Below are positions 26,757 to 61,203 of a DNA stretch of 64,000 nucleotides, piece by piece. Below the pieces are notes generated by a model that searched no databases, was not told where the DNA came from, and saw only the letters and a list, made by a program, of their open reading frames with translations. The position numbers were made by a program, and so were the translations under genes. Positions within the stretch are counted from its first letter, which is position 1. Each line of letters starts with the position of its first letter. Source of the stretch: Homalodisca vitripennis (Eukaryota > Arthropoda > Insecta > Hemiptera > Cicadellidae); the NCBI RefSeq assembly GCF_021130785.1, contig NC_060213.1, positions 135,980,001 through 136,044,000 on the forward strand, given 5' to 3'.

Positions 26757-27727
<971 letters not shown>

Positions 27728-32519: not shown

Positions 32520-35007
32520 CAGTAGAGTCCCGCCGATCCGAACCCCGCCAATCCGAAAATCCGCCTAATCCGAACACGGCTAGGAGAAAATATAAAATTG
32601 CTAAAAAGGCAGGAAAATAAATTAAAACCAGTTATTATAGTAAAACGTAAGTTTTATTTCTCAAAGCATTTACTTACTGACATATAGAAACTGAAATTAC
32701 ATTTGAAACGTTAGATGATACATACATTGTACGGAAATTTATACTGTTAATAAATGAAACATAGTACTGTACTGTACTGTATTTTATAATGTACAAACCC
32801 CTACGCAAGGCTTAGCAAATAATTTGTACTTTAACTTGGACACAATAAGGGATAAAAACGTAAAACAAAACACTGCAAAAACCCAACACTTTCTTAAGAC
32901 CTAAAGTCAGTGATCTTCTTTTGACGCAACACACTAAAACGACTGGGACGATGCAATGTTTCGCCAAACGCCGAAATGAACATTACGTCATTGGGAGTAG
33001 CAGCGGCATGTTGCTCGACGTAGCGTAGAGCGAGGTCAAAGGCACTTGCAGCTGCGCTGTGTGGAACAATATCTGTAGTTTGGGCGTCTCCCTCATCCTC
33101 ACTGCTACATGAGTCATCAGCTGGGACTCCTTGCACCTGTGCCACGATGTCTTCGTCTGTGTACTCCTCGAAGCCTTTGTCATCTACAGCCGTCCACTCA
33201 TCAACACACTCCTTCCTCTACATTTTCGCATCCCGGTATTTTTTTTACAAGAGGAAGAAGTTCGCATTCATTTACCGGTGGAACAACCTCTTCAACAAAC
33301 TGCAGATCAGGCCAAAGATTTTTCCAAGATTTCTGCAGAGCTCCTACGCTTGTGTTCTCCCAAGCCTCTGCCACCCAGAAAATTACATCTTTGATCGTGA
33401 TTTTCTTAAGCTTTTGGAGAATTGTGAGGTCTTCATTTTTCTCAAGCAGGCTTCGGAGCAGCTTTTTTCCCGATAATTTTGCTTCAACGCTTGTAGAACT
33501 CCTTGGTCCATTGGTTGTATGATCGAAGTAACGTTCGGTGGTAGAAAAATGGCTTTTATATCACCAATAACCAGCTCTAAGTCATCCGGATGGGACGGAG
33601 CGTTATCTATGAGTAAACAACGCTCTATCAGGCAGTCCATTTTCCTTCATTGTAGGCTCTCACGTTGGGCACAAATTGTTTCTCAAACCATTCTTGAAAC
33701 AAAGCACGATCCATCCAAGCTTTCTTTTGGTTTTTATAGTAAACCGGCAGAGCGTTCATATTCATGTTTTTAAAACATCGAGGTTTTTTGGATTTACCGA
33801 TAACCATCAAAGGTATCTTATTGGTGGCGGAAGCGTTGCTGCATGCTAATACGGTTAGTCGTTGCTTATCCACTTTAAATCCTGGAGCGGACTTTTCTTC
33901 TCTTGAAGCTAGGCTCTTTTGTTGGCAACGCTTTGAAATTTAGCCCCGTTTCATCAGCATTGTACACTTGCTGGGGTGAGTAGGAGGATGTAATTTCTTT
34001 GAACTCCTGAAGATACTCTGCGGCTGCGTTGCTGTCTGCAGACATCTTTTTGCCAGTTACAGTCAGTTGCCTGATACCGTGCCTTTTTTTTCCACCGATC
34101 TAAAAAACCGCAACTAGCCGAAAATGACGGATCGCCTCCCATAAGGATGTTTAGTAGAAGCGCCTTTTCTTTAATAAGAGGGCCGGTAATGGGAATGCCT
34201 TTTTGTCTCTCTTGAGAAAACCACAAGTAAAGTGCTTCATCGAGTTTGTCATACGATGACACAGTAGTAGTTTGAACGTTTTTCTAGAGTGTTTTCACTT
34301 GTAACAGAGCAAAATTGTTCGATTTTTGCCCGCTTCTTTTTTCCAGTCACTGATCGTCGCTTTAACCGACACCAAATTCAATTGAAAGTTGAGTAGCACT
34401 TTCACCATTGTCTAGTCTTTTGAGAACTTCGAGTTTTTCTTTTAACGTACACGAGTTGTGTTTACGTTTACTAGCCATAATGATATCGGATATACGCACA
34501 GAGCAGAGCAAAGAAACAAAACTGCAAACCACAAACTACAGAATACACAGTAAGAGCACGTGCTGCGCGTAATGGAAGATTGCACTAAACTGTCGTCTCG
34601 CCACTCCGTCACCGGGGTGGGTGGTGGAGGGGATAGGGGTGAGGTAGTGGCAGTCCAATAGTTTTGCGCGCCACACTGTTTTCAAGGTCACCGACCAACT
34701 CGCCCCGCCCACCGCAGACAGGTGGCTTCTACTAGATTCATTACGCACAAACAATGGCACTCAGTTTTCGACCCACGCGATGTTTACCGTACAAAGACAG
34801 GAAGCTGTAATATTATTATTACGTTTAATACGTACTTACTATTGTTTATTGCATTTGATTATTGTATGCATTTAATTGTTTTAAAACCACGTAAATTGCG
34901 ACTTGAAAGTTGATAAATGGTACTATTTAACAAAAATCCGCCTAGTCCGAATTTCCCGTCAATCCGAACAAGGTTCGGTCCCAATTAGTTCGGATTGGGA
35001 CCGCTGA
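32520..35007 (-). mobile_element. Tigger/pogo-type transposon
   Basis: The left end (32520) reads cagtagagtcccgccgatcc after a TA, typical of Tigger elements, with repeated 'aatccgaa' motifs. The right end (34930-35007) holds the inverse motifs ('cctagtccgaa', 'tcaatccgaac', 'gttcggattgggac'). The right tip is diverged and the second TA is not clear. The element encodes a broken transposase on the minus strand. Confidence 0.88.
32894..34480 (-). pseudogene. Tigger/jerky-like transposase, frameshifted
   Basis: Order on the minus strand: N-terminus near 34480 ('MASKRKHNSCTLKEKLEVLK', a CENP-B-type N-terminal helix-turn-helix); CENP-B HTH at 34262-34050 ('LWFSQERQKGIPITGPLIKE'); catalytic segment 1 near 33955 ('ADETGLNF', first Asp); 33873-33628 ('TVLACSNASATNKIPLMVIG', 'WFEKQFVP'); catalytic segments 2 and 3 at 33640-33470 ('[10 protein letters not shown]', '[14 protein letters not shown]'); C-terminal tail 33145-32894 ending 'VLRQKKITDFRS'. 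The three catalytic Asp residues are visible, but at least four frame changes separate the pieces. Plus-strand ORFs at 33109-33773 are antisense shadows. Confidence 0.9.
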
Positions 35008-35388: not shown

Positions 35389-38153
35389 CCTCTTCATGCA
35401 TGAATTTATTAAATAATTAAAAGAAAAATTTTTTTACTTGTTTTTTCTTGTTAAATAGGCTTGCTTGATAACAAAAATAATTTTTTCAGATTTTTTTGCG
35501 TCTTAGTTAAAAAATGGCTGACCTGACGTCATATGACACCACCATGCAATAAGGAAACAAAAAATGGAATGTTACCTTTTTTTATAATTTGTTTTATTTT
35601 CTGTTACATGTACATGGAACAAGTACTATGTTTAAGTTATAAATGTATAAAAACGTATTTAATCTCTTAACATTAAATATTGTCAAATTTTGTAAAATAA
35701 AAAAATATTTATTTTTTCAAATATTAAATTTTAAAACTAAAAATCAATTTATTTTTTTTTAATATCCATATAAGAACATCCTATTTACTATGGAAAGCTT
35801 CCATACAGTCTGGGACATACATGTAAACCACATTTTTTACACTGGAATCTGGTTTTTTTTCCTGCAGAGTTCAAAGCGGCATCGCTGCTCCCTGGCGTTT
35901 TTCGACTTTCGATGGCCAGTGGTCAACTTTGTCGTATCTCAGTTCCGGTATTATGTTTACTGGTAACTTTTTTTTTCTTAAGAGTTGGAGTGTTGTTAGG
36001 AGACATTGAAGAGGGCCTTCCTCTCTTCTTCATGTCACATAACCCTTTTGCAATGAGGGTGTTGGCTACAGATGATTTTGAAAGACAACAAATCTATTTT
36101 TCCATCAACTGAATTTCCTGTAGCACAACCAGGCATTCACTAGGGACACATTTAAGAGGTGAAAGAATACTCTAAGATACCACTTCTTAGACTTTATGCC
36201 ATGAGGGTAATGTGCTATCATTCTGTCCGCCATGTCAACTCCTCCCATGAAGGTGTTATACTCGGATACAGCATGAGGACGAGTGATCGTTATAACTTCT
36301 TTGGTTTTCCTGTCCATAACGTTTTGCAGTATCTTCTGGGATTGCTCCAGCATAAGTAGAGGCAATATGAACTTCCTTGTTATCCAACCACCTAACAATA
36401 GTTATATTGTCACTTGATGTGGTTATTGATGAATTACCTCGCTTTAGTAATTTGCCTGACACTAAATGTCTTTGCAGCATCCTTGATCCGGTTAAGCCTC
36501 ACTGTACCCAATACATATATGCCCTTTTCTGTTAACTGTCCTCAGCAGAGGTAGTGTCCACAAAATAATTATCCATAAAAAGTTTATGGTTTTTGTTAGT
36601 GATGTCGTGGCACAATCTTACAACCATGTCCTGCAACTGGACCTAAGGCTGTAACAGCATGTTTTCTTTCCTCCGTAGAGCTCCAAAGCAATGAAACATA
36701 GCCATTTCTGCTTGCCCTTACCCACATTTTAAATCCCATTTTTTTGGGCTTATTCTTTAATATACTGCTTAGATGTATGGCGACCTTTGAAGGGAATCAT
36801 CATCTCTCATCTATTGCAACATGTTTCTCCCTCACTTTGTGCTTTGTGAAATGATTCATGTAGACTTTCTACAACTGATTGTAACTTCCAAAATCTGTTA
36901 CCATCATCTACCCTGGGTTCTTCATTATTTACAAAGTGTAAATATCTTCTAATTTCTTCAAATCTGTTCACTTGTCATGGAATCAGCAACTAATGAAAAT
37001 CGAAGAGCTGACAACGAGGACCAGTACATTCTCAACCTCGGGTAATGAATGTAAGTCATGGACTATGTTGATTCCCAAAAATATCCTTAGCTCTTTAGTT
37101 GTGAGTTTGAAGTGCTCTTTACTATGTTGAAGAGCATATCTATTCGTTTCAAAAGCTATTTTTTCAATAAGCTCATCAGTGAAGAGATGTTGAAAAAACT
37201 CATAAGGAGTTGCAACCAGTTTATATTTTACAAACCTGTTGTCCCAGAAAGGAGGGAGCACAATTTTTATCCTCTACCACAAATCGGTTGTCCTTGCCAG
37301 CTTCCCAAGTAACATCTGCAAGTGGAATAGGCCCATTGTCATTATTCTCAGTGATCGCATCAGGGGGAGGTAAGCGTAGCATAGGTGCTGCCACTGGCTG
37401 AGGTGCTGAAGACGGCTCCGGTTTGATCGTTAAAATTAGCTAGCTCATCATTTTCCGGAAAATTTTGAAAATCTGTGCAAATTTTCAGAAAGGTCTTTCT
37501 GGTATTTCAATACCTTCTAAAATATTCTGTGAGGTAGCATCAAGTTCAAATAGTTCGTCACCTGAATAAACTTACACTCGTCATCCTCTGACCCAGATGG
37601 AATAAAATTCTCACTAGGTAATTCCAAGTATTCGGCAATATCACTATCATCCAAGACAGAAGTATCCATTTTTTCTTACACCTAAAAAGAAGAAAAAAAT
37701 AAAATAAGTGGAAACTATACCAATCAGTAATGGGCATCGGGATAGTTTCACTTATCGCATGGTGGCGTCATTTGCCACTCATCAATAATTTGTGGCTAAT
37801 TTTGATTGTATTAACAATTTCGAAAATATATATTAGTATATATGTTTACTATATAATACCTAAAAACAGAAAATAATTTTTCTTACCTGATAAAATTTCG
37901 TCATTAATCCAGGAAAAAAATGATAAAACTTCCAAAATAACCTCTCACTAATACCATCAATGCTGGGACTGAATAAAAATGGAGGGAGAAATGAACTGTT
38001 TGCTTTCTCTGTGCTGTAGGGTGGCTTGTACTGCTAACCTATGAGCCCTTGAGTGAACTAGATGAGATAGAGGACAGTTTGGAGTACATCTTATATTTTA
38101 TATATATTTTATTTATTGAGTGGTGTCAAATGACATCGTCATGCATGAAGAGG
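35389..38153 (-). mobile_element. piggyBac transposon (2.77 kb)
   Basis: TTAA at 35385-35388 and 38154-38157 flanks inverted ends CCTCTTCATGCATGAA (left) and CCTCTTCATGCATGAC (right, minus strand). The interior carries a piggyBac transposase on the minus strand with the usual domain order. About 1 kb of the element is AT-rich subterminal DNA. The full-length structure with both ends suggests a fairly recent arrival, but the coding frame is broken. Confidence 0.95.
35800..37669 (-). pseudogene. piggyBac transposase, frameshifted
   Basis: Start 'MDTSVLDDSDIAEYLELPSE' at 37669 (acidic N-terminus). 37261-36983 carries the start of the DDE_Tnp_1_7 domain ('FFQHLFTDELIEKIAFETNR', 'LTTKELRIFLGINIV'). 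First catalytic Asp near 36820 ('HVAIDER'). Second Asp near 36575 ('KLFMDNYFVDT'). 36480-36256 ('IVRWLDNKEVHIAST'). Third Asp at 36398-36105 ('YNTFMGGVDMADRMIAHY'). A C-terminal Cys-rich piece near 35870-35810 ('FELC', 'CKKCGLHVCP') corresponds to the family's zinc-binding tail. All three Asp residues are present. The breaks are frameshifts or single stops, several near homopolymers. Confidence 0.9.
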
Positions 38154-44319: not shown

Positions 44320-51458
<7,139 letters not shown>

Positions 51459-54882: not shown

Positions 54883-54888
54883 TTTATT
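54883..54888 (-). terminator. Candidate polyadenylation signal of GST-B
   Basis: AATAAA on the minus strand about 155 bases past the GST-B stop. It is chosen by position only. Confidence 0.4.
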
Positions 54889-55041
54889 TGAAATGTCAAA
54901 GTTATCTCTATTATCACCCCAAATACTAAAATTACGTAAACTTATTTTAAAAGTTGTTTTTCAAAACCATACAATTTTAAAAGTTTAATACTTAAAATGT
55001 GTGGTTCTCAAACATTCTAAATTGAAATAGCAGAAAACATT

Positions 55042-55239
55042 TTAATATATTGCAGCAGACGTTAGGGCACTGTGACGATGATGATTCTTAATAAAGTACT
55101 CTTTGATGGAAGGAAGATTGTGTACATTTTTAAATATGGTTGTAAATGGTTGATTCCACTGGGAATGGACAATGTCCTTTCCCAACATCTCATTCAGGAG
55201 GGGGTAGAGCCCATAGAAGAATATGTCAGCCCAAGACAG
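55042..55239 (-). CDS. GST-B coding exon 4 (terminal)
   Basis: Acceptor ttctag|ctgtcttgg. 'LSWADIFFYGLYPLLNEMLG' to 'KNHHRHSALTSAAIY', then stop at 55044-55042. The plus-strand ORFs over this exon are shadows. Confidence 0.93.
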   Translation of the reverse strand: MSWADIFFYGLYPLLNEMLGKDIVHSQWNQPFTTIFKNVHNLPSIKEYFIKNHHRHSALTSAAIY

Positions 55240-58200
55240 CTAGAACAAAACGCAGTTTTAAGAGCTCTTGGATAAACAGCAATAAAACAAGACTCTCACT
55301 GATAATTAATTTATTAATTAATAAAATAGAACTTATATATTCTTATTGACCAATCTGGAGCTGGTTTAAAAATATTATTTACCGCATGCGCCATCTCCTA
55401 ATATAAATGGCAGGACATTTTGTAATTTAAAATTTTAATGTTTATGGAATCTTTTTGTTTGTTTTAGTTAGTTGCTTACTTTCAAGGTCAAACTAAAAAA
55501 TTAATTACAATACATTTTTTATATACTTTGGTAAAAAACCTGATCTTGAGAACATGTAAACACATAAATACATACATTTATACGATTAAGATCATGGTAT
55601 AAGACATACAATATTACTGACTATAAGGATTAGATACTTCCAGATGTGTTACAGATCTCAAATCTGTTACACTATTTCATTTGCAGGTATTTCATCTTGA
55701 AATATCAGATTGAAGTGACGATGATCACTCAACAGTTTTGAGGGTCTTCGTTGTTCACTCAATGCATTGCTCATTGCACTTAATCCTAAGAGGACTTTTG
55801 CGCTTGCTTCCAGAATGAAAGGATTTCAGGATGGATAAGGGTGTAGAGGATGCCTACTGTTGAAAATTCATGAGTAGGGATAACGGACTCTATATCTCAG
55901 TCATGTTACTTTGGAAGAGACTTAAGGGAGACTAGCTTTGTTCCATCTTCCTCCAGTCACAGAGGGTAGATGAAGTACTCTCTTGTGTTTAGCGTTTAAA
56001 ACAATGGGAGCTCTACCCATTCCAACAGTCAGTTACTGTCTTGACACTTGTAAGTATACAGATGGTAACCATAATAATACATAAAAGCATGTAAAAAAAT
56101 GAAACAAAATATTTATAAAAATAAATTTTTTACAACTTATTTACCTTATCAATCAAGAAACTTTTGGCTCCTGCCATGTCACTTAGCTTATTGATGTAGT
56201 AGTAAAAGTTCTTGTAGACAAAATCTCTCAGCCCTTCTTTTACGCCAGGAAGTGGTTCATAATAATACATTGCCAGATCTGAAAGAACATCAGTTTTACA
56301 TTTTATTACAGTAACATCATGAAACTTATGGAAAAGACAAGTGATGTAATAATAATATAGATTATAAAATGATTTTCAGAAGTTCTGATTTGTTAATTAT
56401 AGAACTAGGGGTTCCCCAAGGTTGTGCGCTTCGACCCAATTTGTTTATAGATTTTTTAAATTATTTAGCTCTACTACATGAGTTCTTTAAGCTGATGATG
56501 GTACAGTGGGTTAAGTTGGAAACTTATTCCAATGTTTGTGACTGACCTTAATAAAGATTACAGATATCTAGCGGATATCTTAAGACAGCCCTGTTGAAGG
56601 TCTGATACAGCGAGAATGGATGGAGTGTGGAATTTCTCTCACTAATTACCCTTGAAGGTTTCATAATCAAGGCTATTACTGACCTAGGTAAGCCTTAAGA
56701 TATCACACTCTCTATGTAAAGTCTATGTAATTTACTTGCTGTAATGATTACACCTCTATCCCAAGAGCTTCCTAGTCTGTTGTTGCAAGAAAAGATTGAG
56801 CTGTAACTATCCAATGATAAGAGGGGTCTTCCCAAATCTGACTTTAAAATATCATGCCATCCCAGTGAACTAAATAAAGTGCATCAGTATTTTACACACT
56901 TTATCGCACCTGTGGTACTCATATGGTAAAACTTGTTTCTGTATTGATCACTTTGTAAAATACAAGATTTTATGTTCTCTATTACCAACTTGGAGGTAAT
57001 AAGATCGCCTAAATCAGTTCACAGAGCTATTGGAGGTAGAAACTTGTTTGACCTGAAAGGGTTGCTATTTAACACAAAATGGGAAAAAGTGTACACCTCT
57101 TTGGACTCGGAAGAAGCTTACAAGAACTTCAAAAACATAGTAACAGTTGCCCTAGATACTGCGTGCCCTCTCATATCTGCCCGAAGCAAAAAGAGAAAAC
57201 CAAAACACCTTGCTGATGCAGAAGCACTAATGCTCAAGAATGAATTCCTAGCTTATCTTAACGAGTACGAAACTACAGGAAATCTTGATGACAGAAACAA
57301 AACGATGGATTTGAAAAAACCTATGACCAAAAACTGAAAACTCTAAGAAGCCAAGCTATTGCTAAGAAAATTTCCAGAAAACAAATCTAAAACAATTTGA
57401 GAAACAATTAATACTGTCCGATCAAAAAAAAATAGACACCTCACCTGAATTAAAACTAACCATCGATGGAAGACCTGTTGAGGTTGCATATTTGGTTGCT
57501 GAACATTTCAATAACTACTTCACCAACATAGCAAAAAACACCATTAATCTCAAAAAGAACACTTCAAGAAAACCAGTTGAACTTTTCGTGGGAACTCACA
57601 TTAATGAACTCAGCTCACTAAGACCCACAACTCAAGAGTAATTAAGATCAATTCTAAAGAGCTTTAAATAAATAAACTCAGCTGGAATTGATGACATATC
57701 CACAAAAATACTAAAACTCTGTGCAGAAGAACTTATCCGCCCCCTTACTGACATAGGTATTCAATAAATCTTTCAACAAAGGTCTCGTTCCCTCAGCACT
57801 AAAAATATCAAAAATCTATCCTAAATTTAAGGCTGGGAGCAAAGCAGAATTAAGTAACTACAGACCCATCTCATTACTACCAATAGTTTCAAAACTTTGT
57901 GAAAAAATATTTCTCATCAGGCTATTAGAACATTGTAATGTGAACAACCTGATAAGTAGTTCTCAGCATGGTTTCATCAAAGGCAAGTCTACTATAACAG
58001 CAATGACTGACTTAGTGGAATCAGTGACTGATAGCATAGAAAATGGAAACCTGACTACAGCTGTCTTTCTGGACTTAAGTAAAGCCTTCAACTGTCTGGG
58101 ACATGACTTCATAGAGAAGAAACTAAAAGAATTGAGTGTAACAGCAACAGCCTTGAAATGGTTTGAAAGCTACCTCAAAGACCGAAGTCAAGTAGTTGAA

Positions 58201-61200
58201 CTAAAATCAAATGAAAAAGAACTAACCAAAGCAATCCAATCTCAACCTCAGCCTATACAAAGAGGTGTGCCACAGGGATCTGTGCTGGGCCCAGTGCTGT
58301 TCATTCTCTTTACTAATGACCTTCCAGAATACTTACATGAATCTCTAAAACTTTGATGTATGCTGACGATACAACTTTTACTTGACAACAATACACCATT
58401 GCTGTCAACATGGCATATCAATATTGTGATGGCAATGACTTAATGGTTAACCCCTCTAAAACTAACCAACTAGGGTTTGGGAGAAGAGCAGGAAAAATTA
58501 ACTGTCTACCAGATGTCAACTTGGTTGAACAAACCAAATTCCTCGGAATCATAATTGACTCAAGCTTATCCTGGACTCCTCACATTGACCAGCTCTGTAA
58601 TAGGCTAAACTCAAGCCTATATGCACTCAAGCAGGTTAAAACCATCGGTGACTTGACGACAGCATGTACTGCCTATTTTGCTCTGTTTGAGATACGGTTT
58701 AGCTGTTTGGGGAGGGACATCAAATGCTAATATGATCAGAAATCTGATACTCCAAAAAAAAGCAGTTAGAATTCTTGCAAATCTCCATTCCCGGGAGAGC
58801 TGCAGAGAGGCCTTTGCAACATTAAAGATCTTGACCGTGACAGCTCTCTACATCCAAGAAGTTGTCCTGTACGTTGATAGAGAAAACCTATCAAGACTCG
58901 AAGACCTACACTACTACAATACCCACAACTCAACGATGTATCCACTTCCCACTCATCACTTAGCACAGTACGAGAAAAAAACCATCCTACATAGGAAGAA
59001 AGCTGAGCAACTGTCTGCCAACACAAATAAGAACGAAGAGTGGGAAACAGCTCAAGTTCGAACTCCGAAAACTGCTCTCACGCCAGGCCATCTACACGCT
59101 CGAAGAGTTCTACCAACTGACCAATCATGGACTTTAATGCTCTATGCAAAACGTTACAAGTTACCAATTAATTTAACTGCCTTTTGACACTATCTCTGTA
59201 CTTAATGTATATGAATAAAGAAAATGTTGACTTTGACTTCTCTTAGGACAAGAAGCTTATAAATTACACTTAGTCCTATAAGAACCTTAGCACTGATTCC
59301 GGAGTGACAGGATATTCAGGGTGGGTAAGGTTAGGGGGTAGGGGCCGCCTCCTATCGAGATCCATGAGGAAGAATTAGTGCACTAATCTCAAAGTCATGT
59401 TCCCCCGGAAGAAGGGGATGCCATCTCTGAACCAGTCTCTCCAGTCAAAGCACGCAGGGGTAGCACACTCTTGTTGAGGTTATCAAGAACCTCTGATACT
59501 TAGGGAACAAACTCCAACAGTCATCTCCCGCAGTAGACTAGACCTATCAAATTACCCTTGCACATCAGAATCTCAACATTTGCGGTAAGTGATGTGCCAC
59601 TACTGGACATCCATAAGGTTGCCCAGATTTATGTGACACATTAGTTTTTGCTGTGCCCAGTGTAGGTTCAACTGGAAGGTATAAACCAGCCAAAAGTGAT
59701 CCCTGCTGGGTAAAAATACAAGTTACATGGACCCCAAAATCGTACTTCACAATACCTAATAACATAGTAAGCATGACATGCTTAAATTCAACTAAACAAT
59801 ATAAGGCTCCTTAAATGTAATTTTCTTTTTCCAACACCAGTTTCATTTAGATTCTTCCTAACATGATACAAGCTTATTCGGTATCATGTTAAAAAAAGCT
59901 AAGTCAAAAATTTTGTCTGTATTACGGAACAGTATTCTGTTCCCTATTTTCTTCCCATTAACAGGCATGACATTTTGATTTAAGAAATGCCGGTAAGGAA
60001 TATTGGTGTTTCAGAATTGACCCCAGCAACTCACCTTGTCTCATGTCCTCAATTGTATCAACAATGATGTCTATCTGAAGATTCTCATGACTGTTCTTGC
60101 CCCAGAGTTCATCAGCGCCCCACACACAAGCAAGGTAACGGCAGATGTTCTTGATTCGTACAATTTTCTTGCCGTCCTGCTCCACCAGCACAGGGCTCAT
60201 TCCGAAAGGGGTTACTGAATCATACAACCACAGAGTTTCTTGTAAATATTAAACTTTATTTAAACTCGTCGTCCAGCTATTTAAACATAACATAGATGTG
60301 AATGTGAGATTAGCTCCACTTCACCTTCCGCTTACTGCAGTGTCTGGAATCTGACACTGTCACAGAATTGACTCTTGGAATCTGGAGTCATGTTGGTTTG
60401 AAAAGATCCAATAAAATTGGTGACAAAGAAGCTCAAAATTAACTCTTTACATTGTTTTGGCATCAGAGACACCTAGACTACAACATGTAGTTTAATCTAG
60501 GTGAATGGATATTCGCATTGTATAATCAGGTGCAGAATTGAGAATTATAACACCTATTCACCAAGATTAGACTATATTTTCATATTTTGTTGTGTAGGTG
60601 ATGTCAAAACGATGTAAAGAGTTCATTTTGAGCTTCTTCGTCATTAACTTTTTTCGGATCTCCAAGAGATTCCAAGAGATTCTCCAGATTCTGTGACAGA
60701 CTCAGATTTCAGACGCTGCACTGGAAATAAACTCAATGTTCATATTAAATCAAAACTTCCCACCACAGTTACGTTATAACTTGAGCACTCTGTTTTTTTT
60801 TTGTCTTTGGAATTCAGACTGCACTGACTTAAGGCAACAGATAAGTATAGTAAGAAGAATAAATTAAATCTAAGAATCTAGAGCTGACTGAGGAAATCCT
60901 GGAGTGGAAATCAGTAGGAAAATACCTAGGGATGGTTCTTGATACAAAAACTCACATGGAAAAAATGTTGATGATATTATTAGTATTAATACTGGTTCAC
61001 CCAACAACTAGAGTCACAATTGAGTCAAACTGATATCACTCACCTGCTTTGTGTTTCGTGTTCCATTCTGTTTCAGTACAGAATTCCACTGTGTACGATA
61101 AATTCAGATACTCCATTAAAAGAATGACAGGTTCAACAAGCATTTCTTGATTCTTGAGTGCGATTAACTGGTATTGGAACTGTGTCTCGTTAGATAAGTC

Positions 61201-61203
61201 CAT
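55042..61203 (-). CDS. Divergent sigma-GST-like protein (GST-B), four coding exons, catalytic residues lost
   Basis: Coding exons on the minus strand: 61203-61044, 60214-60035, 56278-56145 and 55239-55042. They give 672 bp, 223 aa. All junctions are canonical and phases (1, 1, 0) equal those of GST-A, so the pair arose by tandem duplication. GST landmarks remain: cis-Pro61 in 'GMSPVLVEQ', 'RYLACVWG' (the RYLG helix in GST-A), 'NLQIDIIVDTIEDMRQ' and the N-capping box 'LSWADIFF'. The N-terminus 'TQFQYQLIALKNQEMLVEP' has no Tyr at the catalytic position when aligned on Glu-Pro (Leu16; the nearest Tyr is 11). The glutathione-contacting Gln-Ser pair is Arg73-Ile74. The tail is long and His-rich ('NHHRHSALTSAAIY'). 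Open frame and intact splicing argue for a functional protein without standard GST activity. The role is unknown; ligand binding or a structural function is speculation. Confidence 0.9.
55240..56144 (-). other. GST-B intron 3
   Basis: Contains the dispersed repeat at 55770-56045; the rest is AT-rich with no other feature. Confidence 0.5.
55770..56045. repeat. Dispersed intronic repeat, copy 1 (partner 59258-59530)
   Basis: Shares ordered blocks with 59258-59530: 'cacttaatcctaagagga' / 'cacttagtcctataagaa'; 'aggatggataagggtgtagagg' / 'agggtgggtaaggttagggg'; 'tctcagtcatgtt' / 'ctcaaagtcatgtt'; 'ctccagtca'; and 'actctcttgt' / 'cactcttgtt'. Both are in the same orientation, in introns 3 and 2 of GST-B. 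Confidence 0.7.
56145..56278 (-). CDS. GST-B coding exon 3
   Basis: Acceptor tttcag|atctggc, donor ataag|gtaaat. 'LAMYYYEPLPGVKEGLRDFV' to 'AGAKSFLIDK'. It is nine bases shorter than GST-A exon 3 but has the same phases. Confidence 0.92.
56395..56510 (+). pseudogene. Reverse transcriptase fragment
   Basis: Reads 'LGVPQGCALRPNLFIDFLN' and, shortly after, 'ADDGT', the RT motif 5 plus catalytic ADD region of a non-LTR element in a very short space. The sequence between them is collapsed. It is distinct from the LINE starting at about 56750. Confidence 0.65.
56750..59228 (+). mobile_element. Non-LTR retrotransposon (jockey-like), 5'-truncated, in GST-B intron 2
   Basis: Antisense to GST-B. The endonuclease is mostly missing. 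A linker, RT and thumb are present in shifted frames. It ends 'aataaagaaaatgttgactttgactt' shortly after the last ORF. No target duplication was identified. Confidence 0.85.
56972..59187 (+). pseudogene. Non-LTR ORF2 remnant with intact RT motifs
   Basis: 56972-57337 is the endonuclease-RT linker ('FNTKWEKVYTSLDSEEAYKN'). RT fingers lie near 57838-57900 ('YRPISLLPIVSKL'). 57940-58356 (138 codons) carries 'QHGFIKGKSTITAMTDLVES', 'AVFLDLSKAFNCL' and 'RGVPQGSVLGPVLFILFTND'. After a one-base shift 'MYADDTTF' supplies the catalytic pair. 58410-58730 carries the thumb ('FLGIIIDSSLSWTPHI'). 58678-59187 is the C-terminal region, ending 'RYKLPINLTAF' before the stop. At least five frame changes. It is the best-preserved RT in the window together with 20448-20720. 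Confidence 0.88.
59258..59530. repeat. Dispersed intronic repeat, copy 2 (partner 55770-56045)
   Basis: Directly follows the LINE 3' end. See copy 1 for shared blocks. It is more G+C-rich than the surrounding intron. Confidence 0.7.
60035..60214 (-). CDS. GST-B coding exon 2
   Basis: Acceptor gattcag|taacccc, donor acaag|gtgagt. 'TPFGMSPVLVEQDGKKIVRI' to 'DTIEDMRQ'. Contains cis-Pro61 and the altered Arg73-Ile74 pair. Confidence 0.93.
60296..60750. repeat. Foldback repeat copy with split arms
   Basis: The left arm 60296-60475 ('gaatgtgagattagctccacttcaccttccgctta', 'gaagctcaaaattaactctttacattgttttggcatca') and right arm 60608-60750 ('gatgtcaaaacgatgtaaagagttcattttgagcttctt', 'aaactcaatgttc') are inverted relatives. 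About 130 bp lies between them. Same family as 53142-53374. Confidence 0.75.
60855..60970 (+). pseudogene. RT thumb fragment of a non-LTR element
   Basis: 'LTEEILEWKSVGKYLGMVLD' followed by 'TKTHMEK' matches the thumb motif (xxKYLGxxLDxKLxW) of jockey-type reverse transcriptases. It is an isolated scrap. Confidence 0.6.
61044..61203 (-). CDS. GST-B coding exon 1
   Basis: 'MDLSNETQFQYQLIALKNQE' to 'TEWNTKHKA' plus one base; donor gcag|gtgagt. The start is the first ATG in the exon, placed like that of GST-A but with a longer leader. Confidence 0.85.

What the first reader, a model, noticed from the sequence alone, without database searches (positions are those of the whole stretch)
55042..61203. 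A tandem sigma-GST paralog that has lost the catalytic Tyr and the glutathione-binding Gln-Ser pair but keeps an intact gene
GST-A and GST-B share exon number and intron phases. GST-A has Tyr9 and Gln64-Ser65. GST-B has no Tyr at the aligned position and Arg73-Ile74 in place of Gln-Ser, yet all four exons are open and all splice sites canonical, with no premature stop over 223 codons. That pattern suggests selection for a non-canonical role (ligand carriage, structural or signalling) rather than decay.
Basis: partly seen in the sequence, partly recalled or inferred. Interest (0 to 1): 0.75.

Follow-up and report, generated by a model that had tools for sequence, protein, structure and literature searches.

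The report
Sharpshooter GST lacking catalytic residues
A leafhopper gene that descends from a detoxifying enzyme has lost the parts of the active site that hold and activate glutathione, yet closely related species keep it intact, so it probably does a different, non-enzymatic job.

Summary
Confirmed. GST-B (window 61203-55042, minus strand, four exons, 223 aa) is intact with canonical splice sites and shares intron phases with GST-A, 3.6 kb away. The window is most likely Homalodisca vitripennis. Colinear 223-aa orthologs exist in H. liturata (98%) and Cuerna arida (83%), species with published adult transcriptomes. All three have Ala15 at the catalytic Tyr and Arg73-Ile74 for Gln-Ser; Tyr stands in 185 of 187 other sigma GSTs examined. 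Structure comparison puts residue 15, not Tyr11, at the catalytic place.

It is not decaying: orthologs differ at 2 of 61 sites where GST-B keeps the family residue, against 36 of 162 others; changes are conservative. It does evolve about 2 to 5 times faster than two catalytic paralogs, and it is not GST-A's sister.

Best reading: a sigma-GST-derived pseudoenzyme of sharpshooters that does not conjugate glutathione. A ligand-binding or partner role is inferred. Catalytically dead GSTs are known, but S-crystallins keep the glutathione anchor lost here. dN/dS and expression in H. vitripennis were not obtained.

The parts
55042..61203 (-). GST-B gene, start codon to stop codon, 223 aa
   Evidence: spliced translation, canonical splice sites; colinear 223-aa orthologs P0001 and P0002
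61044..61203 (-). GST-B exon 1: beta1 with Ala15 at the catalytic Tyr position, Ile27 and Phe41 in place of arginines otherwise invariant, Trp47 kept
   Evidence: strand 10-16 in the model of the H. liturata ortholog
60035..60214 (-). GST-B exon 2: cis-Pro61 kept, Arg73-Ile74 in place of Gln-Ser, Arg79 and Asp102 kept
   Evidence: residues 60-82 identical between the window and C. arida
56145..56278 (-). GST-B exon 3 (C-terminal domain)
   Evidence: PF14497 in ortholog P0001 residues 109-207
55042..55239 (-). GST-B exon 4, with a C-terminal tail (RHSALTSAAIY) identical in all three orthologs
54883..54888 (-). AATAAA about 154 nt past the GST-B stop, candidate polyadenylation signal (an ATTAAA lies nearer, at 54989)
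   Evidence: pattern only
56279..60034 (-). GST-B intron 2, which holds an antisense broken retroelement (reverse transcriptase at 57757-58356, + strand)
44320..51458 (-). GST-A gene (exons 51458-51323, 47861-47694, 45797-45655, 44505-44320), canonical sigma GST, 210 aa
   Evidence: 96% identical to C. arida P0004

Best explanation
GST-B is a maintained, non-catalytic sigma-GST-derived protein (a pseudoenzyme) of sharpshooter leafhoppers. Shown: an intact gene, colinear orthologs in two further species, loss of the Tyr and the Gln-Ser pair in all three, a predicted sigma fold, and purifying selection since Homalodisca and Cuerna split. Inferred: without the Tyr that stabilises the thiolate and the Gln-Ser that holds the gamma-glutamyl end, it no longer binds and activates glutathione; it probably folds as a GST-type dimer and uses the kept C-terminal domain and a remodelled N-domain pocket (Arg73, Ile74, Lys75, Asn76) to hold a ligand or a protein partner. 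Ligand sequestration is my first choice of role, at about 0.4 on its own.
Against: No activity, binding or expression data for H. vitripennis. GST-B diverges faster (185 of 223 identical, Homalodisca-Cuerna) than GST-A (201 of 210) or a third pair (186 of 204), so constraint is looser than in these catalytic paralogs. Part of the G-site remains (Trp47, cis-Pro61, Asp102), so weak glutathione binding is possible. Absence of stops alone is weak evidence (10-11% of neutral runs).
Confidence: 0.72

Rival explanations
1. GST-B still is a GST-type enzyme: another group activates glutathione or another cofactor, or it catalyses a reaction that does not need the Tyr.
For: Trp47, cis-Pro61, Arg79 and Asp102 kept in all three orthologs, Lys52 in two of three; predicted fold intact.
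Against: No Tyr, Ser, Cys, Thr or His in residues 12-31; Gln-Ser replaced by Arg-Ile in all three species; residue 59 is Met, Met, Arg where relatives have mostly Lys or Gln (Arg in 4 of 187).
Confidence: 0.13
2. GST-B is a regulatory subunit (a version of the pseudoenzyme reading, counted within it): it pairs with an active sigma GST such as its neighbour GST-A in heterodimers and tunes its activity or stability.
For: Same strand and neighbourhood as GST-A; Arg79, Glu97, Asp102 and Asp110 are kept (that some of these lie at the dimer interface is recalled).
Against: No interaction data; the H. liturata GST-B is only about 31% identical to GST-A's C. arida ortholog and GST-B is not GST-A's sister, so interface matching is doubtful.
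Confidence: 0.2
3. GST-B is an early pseudogene that happens to be open in these individuals.
For: Fast evolution: the branch joining it to the other sigma GSTs is 2.4 to 3.0 changes per site in three trees; no NCBI record from H. vitripennis appears among the three hits; intron 2 carries a retroelement.
Against: Three species keep the same 223-codon frame; 2 of 61 against 36 of 162 sites; conservative changes.
Confidence: 0.06
4. Alignment error: Tyr11 is the real catalytic tyrosine.
For: A Tyr lies four residues upstream in the same strand.
Against: Tyr11 aligns with a different beta1 Tyr found in 160 of 193 relatives. Structural ranges put residue 8 opposite 47 of Drosophila GST-2, so, without a gap, 15 opposite 54, its thiolate-stabilising Tyr. 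In the control model of GST-A's C. arida ortholog Tyr9 ends strand 5-9; in the GST-B model, strand 10-16, residue 15 lies near the end and Tyr11 near the start.
Confidence: 0.03

Closest known systems
Canonical insect sigma-class GSTs (Bla g 5 4q5r, Drosophila GST-2/GSTS1 1m0u, Nilaparvata lugens PGD synthase 5h5l)
   Same: Fold; Trp, cis-Pro and Asp of the glutathione-site region; 28-32% identity
   Different: Catalytic Tyr, Gln-Ser and two otherwise invariant Arg lost; several inserts of one to three residues in the N-terminal half; a different C-terminal tail
Cephalopod S-crystallins
   Same: Sigma-GST duplicates that gave up most enzyme activity for another job
   Different: The octopus S-crystallin keeps Arg14, Gln64 and Ser65 and binds glutathione, and has a long alpha4-alpha5 loop (PMC4976375, abstract and passages); GST-B loses Gln-Ser and the Tyr and has a short loop
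Non-catalytic, ligand-sequestering insect GSTs
   Same: Sequestration without catalysis is reported for insect GSTs (PMC9576527, abstract and passages; PMC13397897, search listing only)
   Different: In GST-B the conserved G-site residues themselves are gone; no ligand is known
Sigma-GST expansions in Hemiptera (21 sigma genes in Halyomorpha halys, PMC7071726, passages)
   Same: GST-B belongs to a lineage with many sigma GST duplicates
   Different: The passages seen do not speak of catalytic-site loss

Membership tests
Sigma-class GST (by descent and fold) | Groups with sigma GSTs in sequence and structure | tested here: met
Catalytic sigma-class GST | Tyr at the end of beta1 | tested here: not met
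   Ala15 in all three orthologs
Catalytic sigma-class GST | Gln-Ser pair that binds the gamma-glutamyl group | tested here: not met
   Arg73-Ile74 in all three
Catalytic sigma-class GST | Glutathione conjugating activity | not testable with these tools
   needs recombinant protein
Ser- or Cys-type GST (delta, theta, omega) | Ser or Cys at the end of beta1 / start of alpha1 (recalled) | tested here: not met
   no Ser or Cys in residues 12-31
S-crystallin | Kept Gln64 and Ser65 that hold glutathione | tested here: not met
   Arg73-Ile74; S-crystallin residues from PMC4976375 passages
S-crystallin | Long alpha4-alpha5 loop (long-loop members) | tested here: not met
   helices 95-119 and 124-149, loop of four residues as in the control model, 83-107 and 112-140
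Pseudogene | No constraint on protein sequence | tested here: not met
   2 of 61 against 36 of 162 sites differ; conservative changes; codon dN/dS not computed

The most novel reading that the evidence does not exclude
Sharpshooters have turned a sigma GST into a glutathione-independent binding protein whose remodelled G-site (the stretch 60-82, unchanged between Homalodisca and Cuerna, with Arg73-Ile74-Lys75-Asn76) recognises a new ligand or partner tied to xylem feeding, one of several separate erosions of the catalytic site among sharpshooter sigma GSTs (Ser in P0180, Asp in P0016, Gln to Trp in P0023).
Probability: 0.2. Interest if true: 0.6.

Novelty: new variant of a known kind. Interest (0 to 1): 0.4.

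Why it matters
Sigma GSTs are expanded in some hemipterans and tend to be counted as detoxification genes. A conserved member that lacks the residues for GST chemistry warns against counting genes as enzymes, and offers a natural case of enzyme-to-binding-protein evolution in a vector of Xylella: unlike the octopus S-crystallin, it lost the glutathione anchor itself.

Tried and rejected
Tyr11 as displaced catalytic Tyr: rejected. GST-B as recent tandem duplicate of GST-A: rejected (p-AU 0.004); membership in the wider leafhopper cluster is neither supported nor rejected (p-AU 0.27). A 'burst then brake' history suggested by the first tree was dropped: in the closer tree GST-B is roughly 4-5 times faster than GST-A both on the whole path and between Homalodisca and Cuerna, and 2 times faster than the third pair between the genera (sums of branch lengths, done by hand). 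Long-branch attraction remains a caution; the attachment of GST-B is unresolved. A GST-B ortholog outside Homalodisca and Cuerna: none (3 hits of 86 candidates) or among the 120 of 251 hits listed, although eight Graphocephala sigma proteins appear in the lists; weak evidence of absence, as transcriptomes are partial and the lists capped. The frequency counts lean to canonical GSTs (120 of 164 and 120 of 251 hits listed). Rows dropped before counting: P0005, P0055, P0080, P0084, P0115 and P0130 (mis-annotated or truncated); P0005, P0055, P0080 and P0115. dN/dS: no ortholog DNA was obtained; the window's own genome could not be searched and I tried no other collection for it. NCBIfam gave no match above a cut-off. 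Ten paper searches listed no title on a sharpshooter or leafhopper sigma GST without catalytic residues; apart from the papers named in this report (and passages of PMC8496328, the H. vitripennis genome paper, where 'glutathione' and 'sigma' do not occur in the main text) only titles and abstract starts were seen.

Full report
What is there. On the minus strand, GST-B consists of exons 61203-61044, 60214-60035, 56278-56145 and 55239-55042; all introns are GT-AG, the CDS is 672 nt, 223 codons plus TAA. GST-A follows 3.6 kb downstream on the same strand (51458-44320), also four exons, 210 aa, with the same intron phases 1, 1, 0. A tblastn with eleven sigma GSTs (two of them GST-A and GST-B) found no third sigma locus in the window at E 0.01.

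Where it comes from. GST-A is 99% identical, over 79% of its length, to J6590_003665 of Homalodisca vitripennis and 96% to a Cuerna arida protein; J6590_003664 and J6590_003660 are further sigma GSTs listed on a contig of the same length, 3,781,429 bases, so the pair probably belongs to a cluster. GST-B's closest proteins are P0001 from H. liturata (98%, 223 aa) and P0002 from C. arida (83%, 223 aa); the third and last hit is an ordinary Lygus sigma GST at 35%. Among the five canonical relatives aligned with P0001, the highest identity is 40%, to a Clastoptera protein. Both orthologs' species were sequenced as whole-adult transcriptomes by Tassone et al. (PMC5467018, first of two parts of the text read); that the two protein records derive from those assemblies is my inference. 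None of the three hits carries an NCBI H. vitripennis record, so the gene seems to be missing from, or mis-modelled in, that annotation.

What is lost and kept. On an alignment of 196 proteins, after dropping six mis-annotated or truncated rows, 187 other sigma GSTs have Tyr at the catalytic column in 185, Gln in 183 of 186 with a letter and Ser in 169; GST-B and both orthologs have Ala15, Arg73 and Ile74. They also lose two arginines present in 187 of 187 (Ile27, Val in C. arida; Phe41). Kept in all three are Trp47, cis-Pro61, Arg79 and Asp102; Lys52 is kept in two and is Gln in C. arida. Across 46 columns conserved in at least 90% of 117 relatives, GST-B keeps 31; the lowest of the 117 keeps 35. 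Pfam recognises the N-terminal domain of the orthologs only from residue 26 on, while GST-A's ortholog is matched from residue 6. The set was gathered with GST-A and mixed queries from capped lists, so it leans to canonical members.

Is the Tyr really gone? Tyr11 aligns with another beta1 Tyr, present in 160 of 193 relatives. The AlphaFold2 model of the H. liturata ortholog (pLDDT 88.7, pTM 0.88) aligns with Drosophila GST-2 from residue 8 opposite 47, with Bla g 5 from 8 opposite 2, with squid sigma GST from 9 opposite 1. Only range ends are given, but without a gap in the first residues these place residue 15 at the catalytic Tyr (Tyr54 in Drosophila, passage of PMC9576527; the other Tyr numbers are recalled). 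The control model of GST-A's C. arida ortholog has strand 5-9 ending in Tyr9. If the one-residue insertion is moved, Leu16 takes the place; neither can replace Tyr. No Tyr, Ser, Cys, Thr or His lies in residues 12-31.

Decay or constraint? Between the window and C. arida GST-B differs at 38 of 223 sites, with no indel. Where GST-B keeps the majority residue of the family (61 columns, 50% threshold) 2 differ, against 36 of the other 162 sites (hypergeometric P 2.5e-4; at the 70% threshold 2 of 45, P 0.006; at 90%, 1 of 29, P 0.024). Neutral simulation from the window CDS to the same divergence gave mean BLOSUM62 of -0.41 and -0.33 for two mutation settings; the observed 0.53 was reached in 0 and 1 of 2000 runs, while 10-11% of runs had no stop. 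The stretch 60-82 that holds the altered Arg-Ile pair shows 0 of 23 differences (P 0.011, a stretch chosen after seeing the alignment; of the eight stretches tried only this and the overlapping 54-84 fell below 0.05, and the longest identical run was no longer than chance). Against strong constraint: identity between the genera is 185/223 for GST-B, 201/210 for GST-A and 186/204 for a third sigma pair.

Descent. In trees of 46, 34 and 39 proteins the branch joining GST-B to the rest is 2.4 to 3.0 changes per site (in the first two it is the sum across a midpoint root). Sister to GST-A is rejected (p-AU 0.004); inside the leafhopper cluster is not (0.27). With closer taxa it falls among cicada, spittlebug and leafhopper proteins, apart from one planthopper and one cockroach protein (95/91). 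No ortholog was seen from Graphocephala, although eight of its sigma GSTs appear in the lists.

How it probably works. Thiolate-stabilising Tyr and the glutamyl anchor are both gone, so glutathione conjugation is very unlikely; this is inferred from residues. Octopus S-crystallin shows the contrast: it gave up most catalysis but keeps Arg14, Gln64, Ser65 and binds glutathione, and its authors write that Gln64 would seem essential for binding and catalysis (PMC4976375, passages). GST-B should therefore be a GST-fold protein acting by binding: ligand sequestration first, partner subunit second. Neither is tested.

Verdict. A real and conserved pseudo-GST, a new variant of a known kind (catalytically dead GST paralogs). 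Interest is moderate: unusually complete G-site loss and a clear path to testing, but the class of event is familiar.

Noticed in passing
P0180 (H. vitripennis), P0016 (Graphocephala), P0023 and P0045 (H. vitripennis): Other sharpshooter sigma GSTs with altered sites: Ser at the catalytic Tyr with Gln-Pro; Asp at the Tyr; Trp for Gln. P0016 groups with the Tyr-bearing P0013, so its loss is separate.
   Followed up: partly
window 44320-51458: The public model of GST-A (J6590_003665, P0005, 286 aa) has extra residues between exons 1 and 2 that come from intron 1 (some lie in the open frame at 48655-49098), most likely an annotation error.
   Followed up: partly
window 56948-59187, + strand: A broken retroelement lies antisense in GST-B intron 2 (reverse transcriptase domain at 57757-58356; the other open frames are assigned to it by eye).
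   Followed up: partly
window 33628-33939 (-) and 36983-37273 (-): Fragments of DDE_1 (pogo-like) and DDE_Tnp_1_7 (piggyBac-like) transposases (the element names are recalled).
   Followed up: no
P0082 and P0083/P0086: A protein labelled Bombyx mori is nearly identical to Nilaparvata lugens sigma GST, probably a mislabelled or contaminated record.
   Followed up: no
window 26757-27035, + strand: An open frame resembling ribosomal protein L23 (recognised from memory, frame).
   Followed up: no
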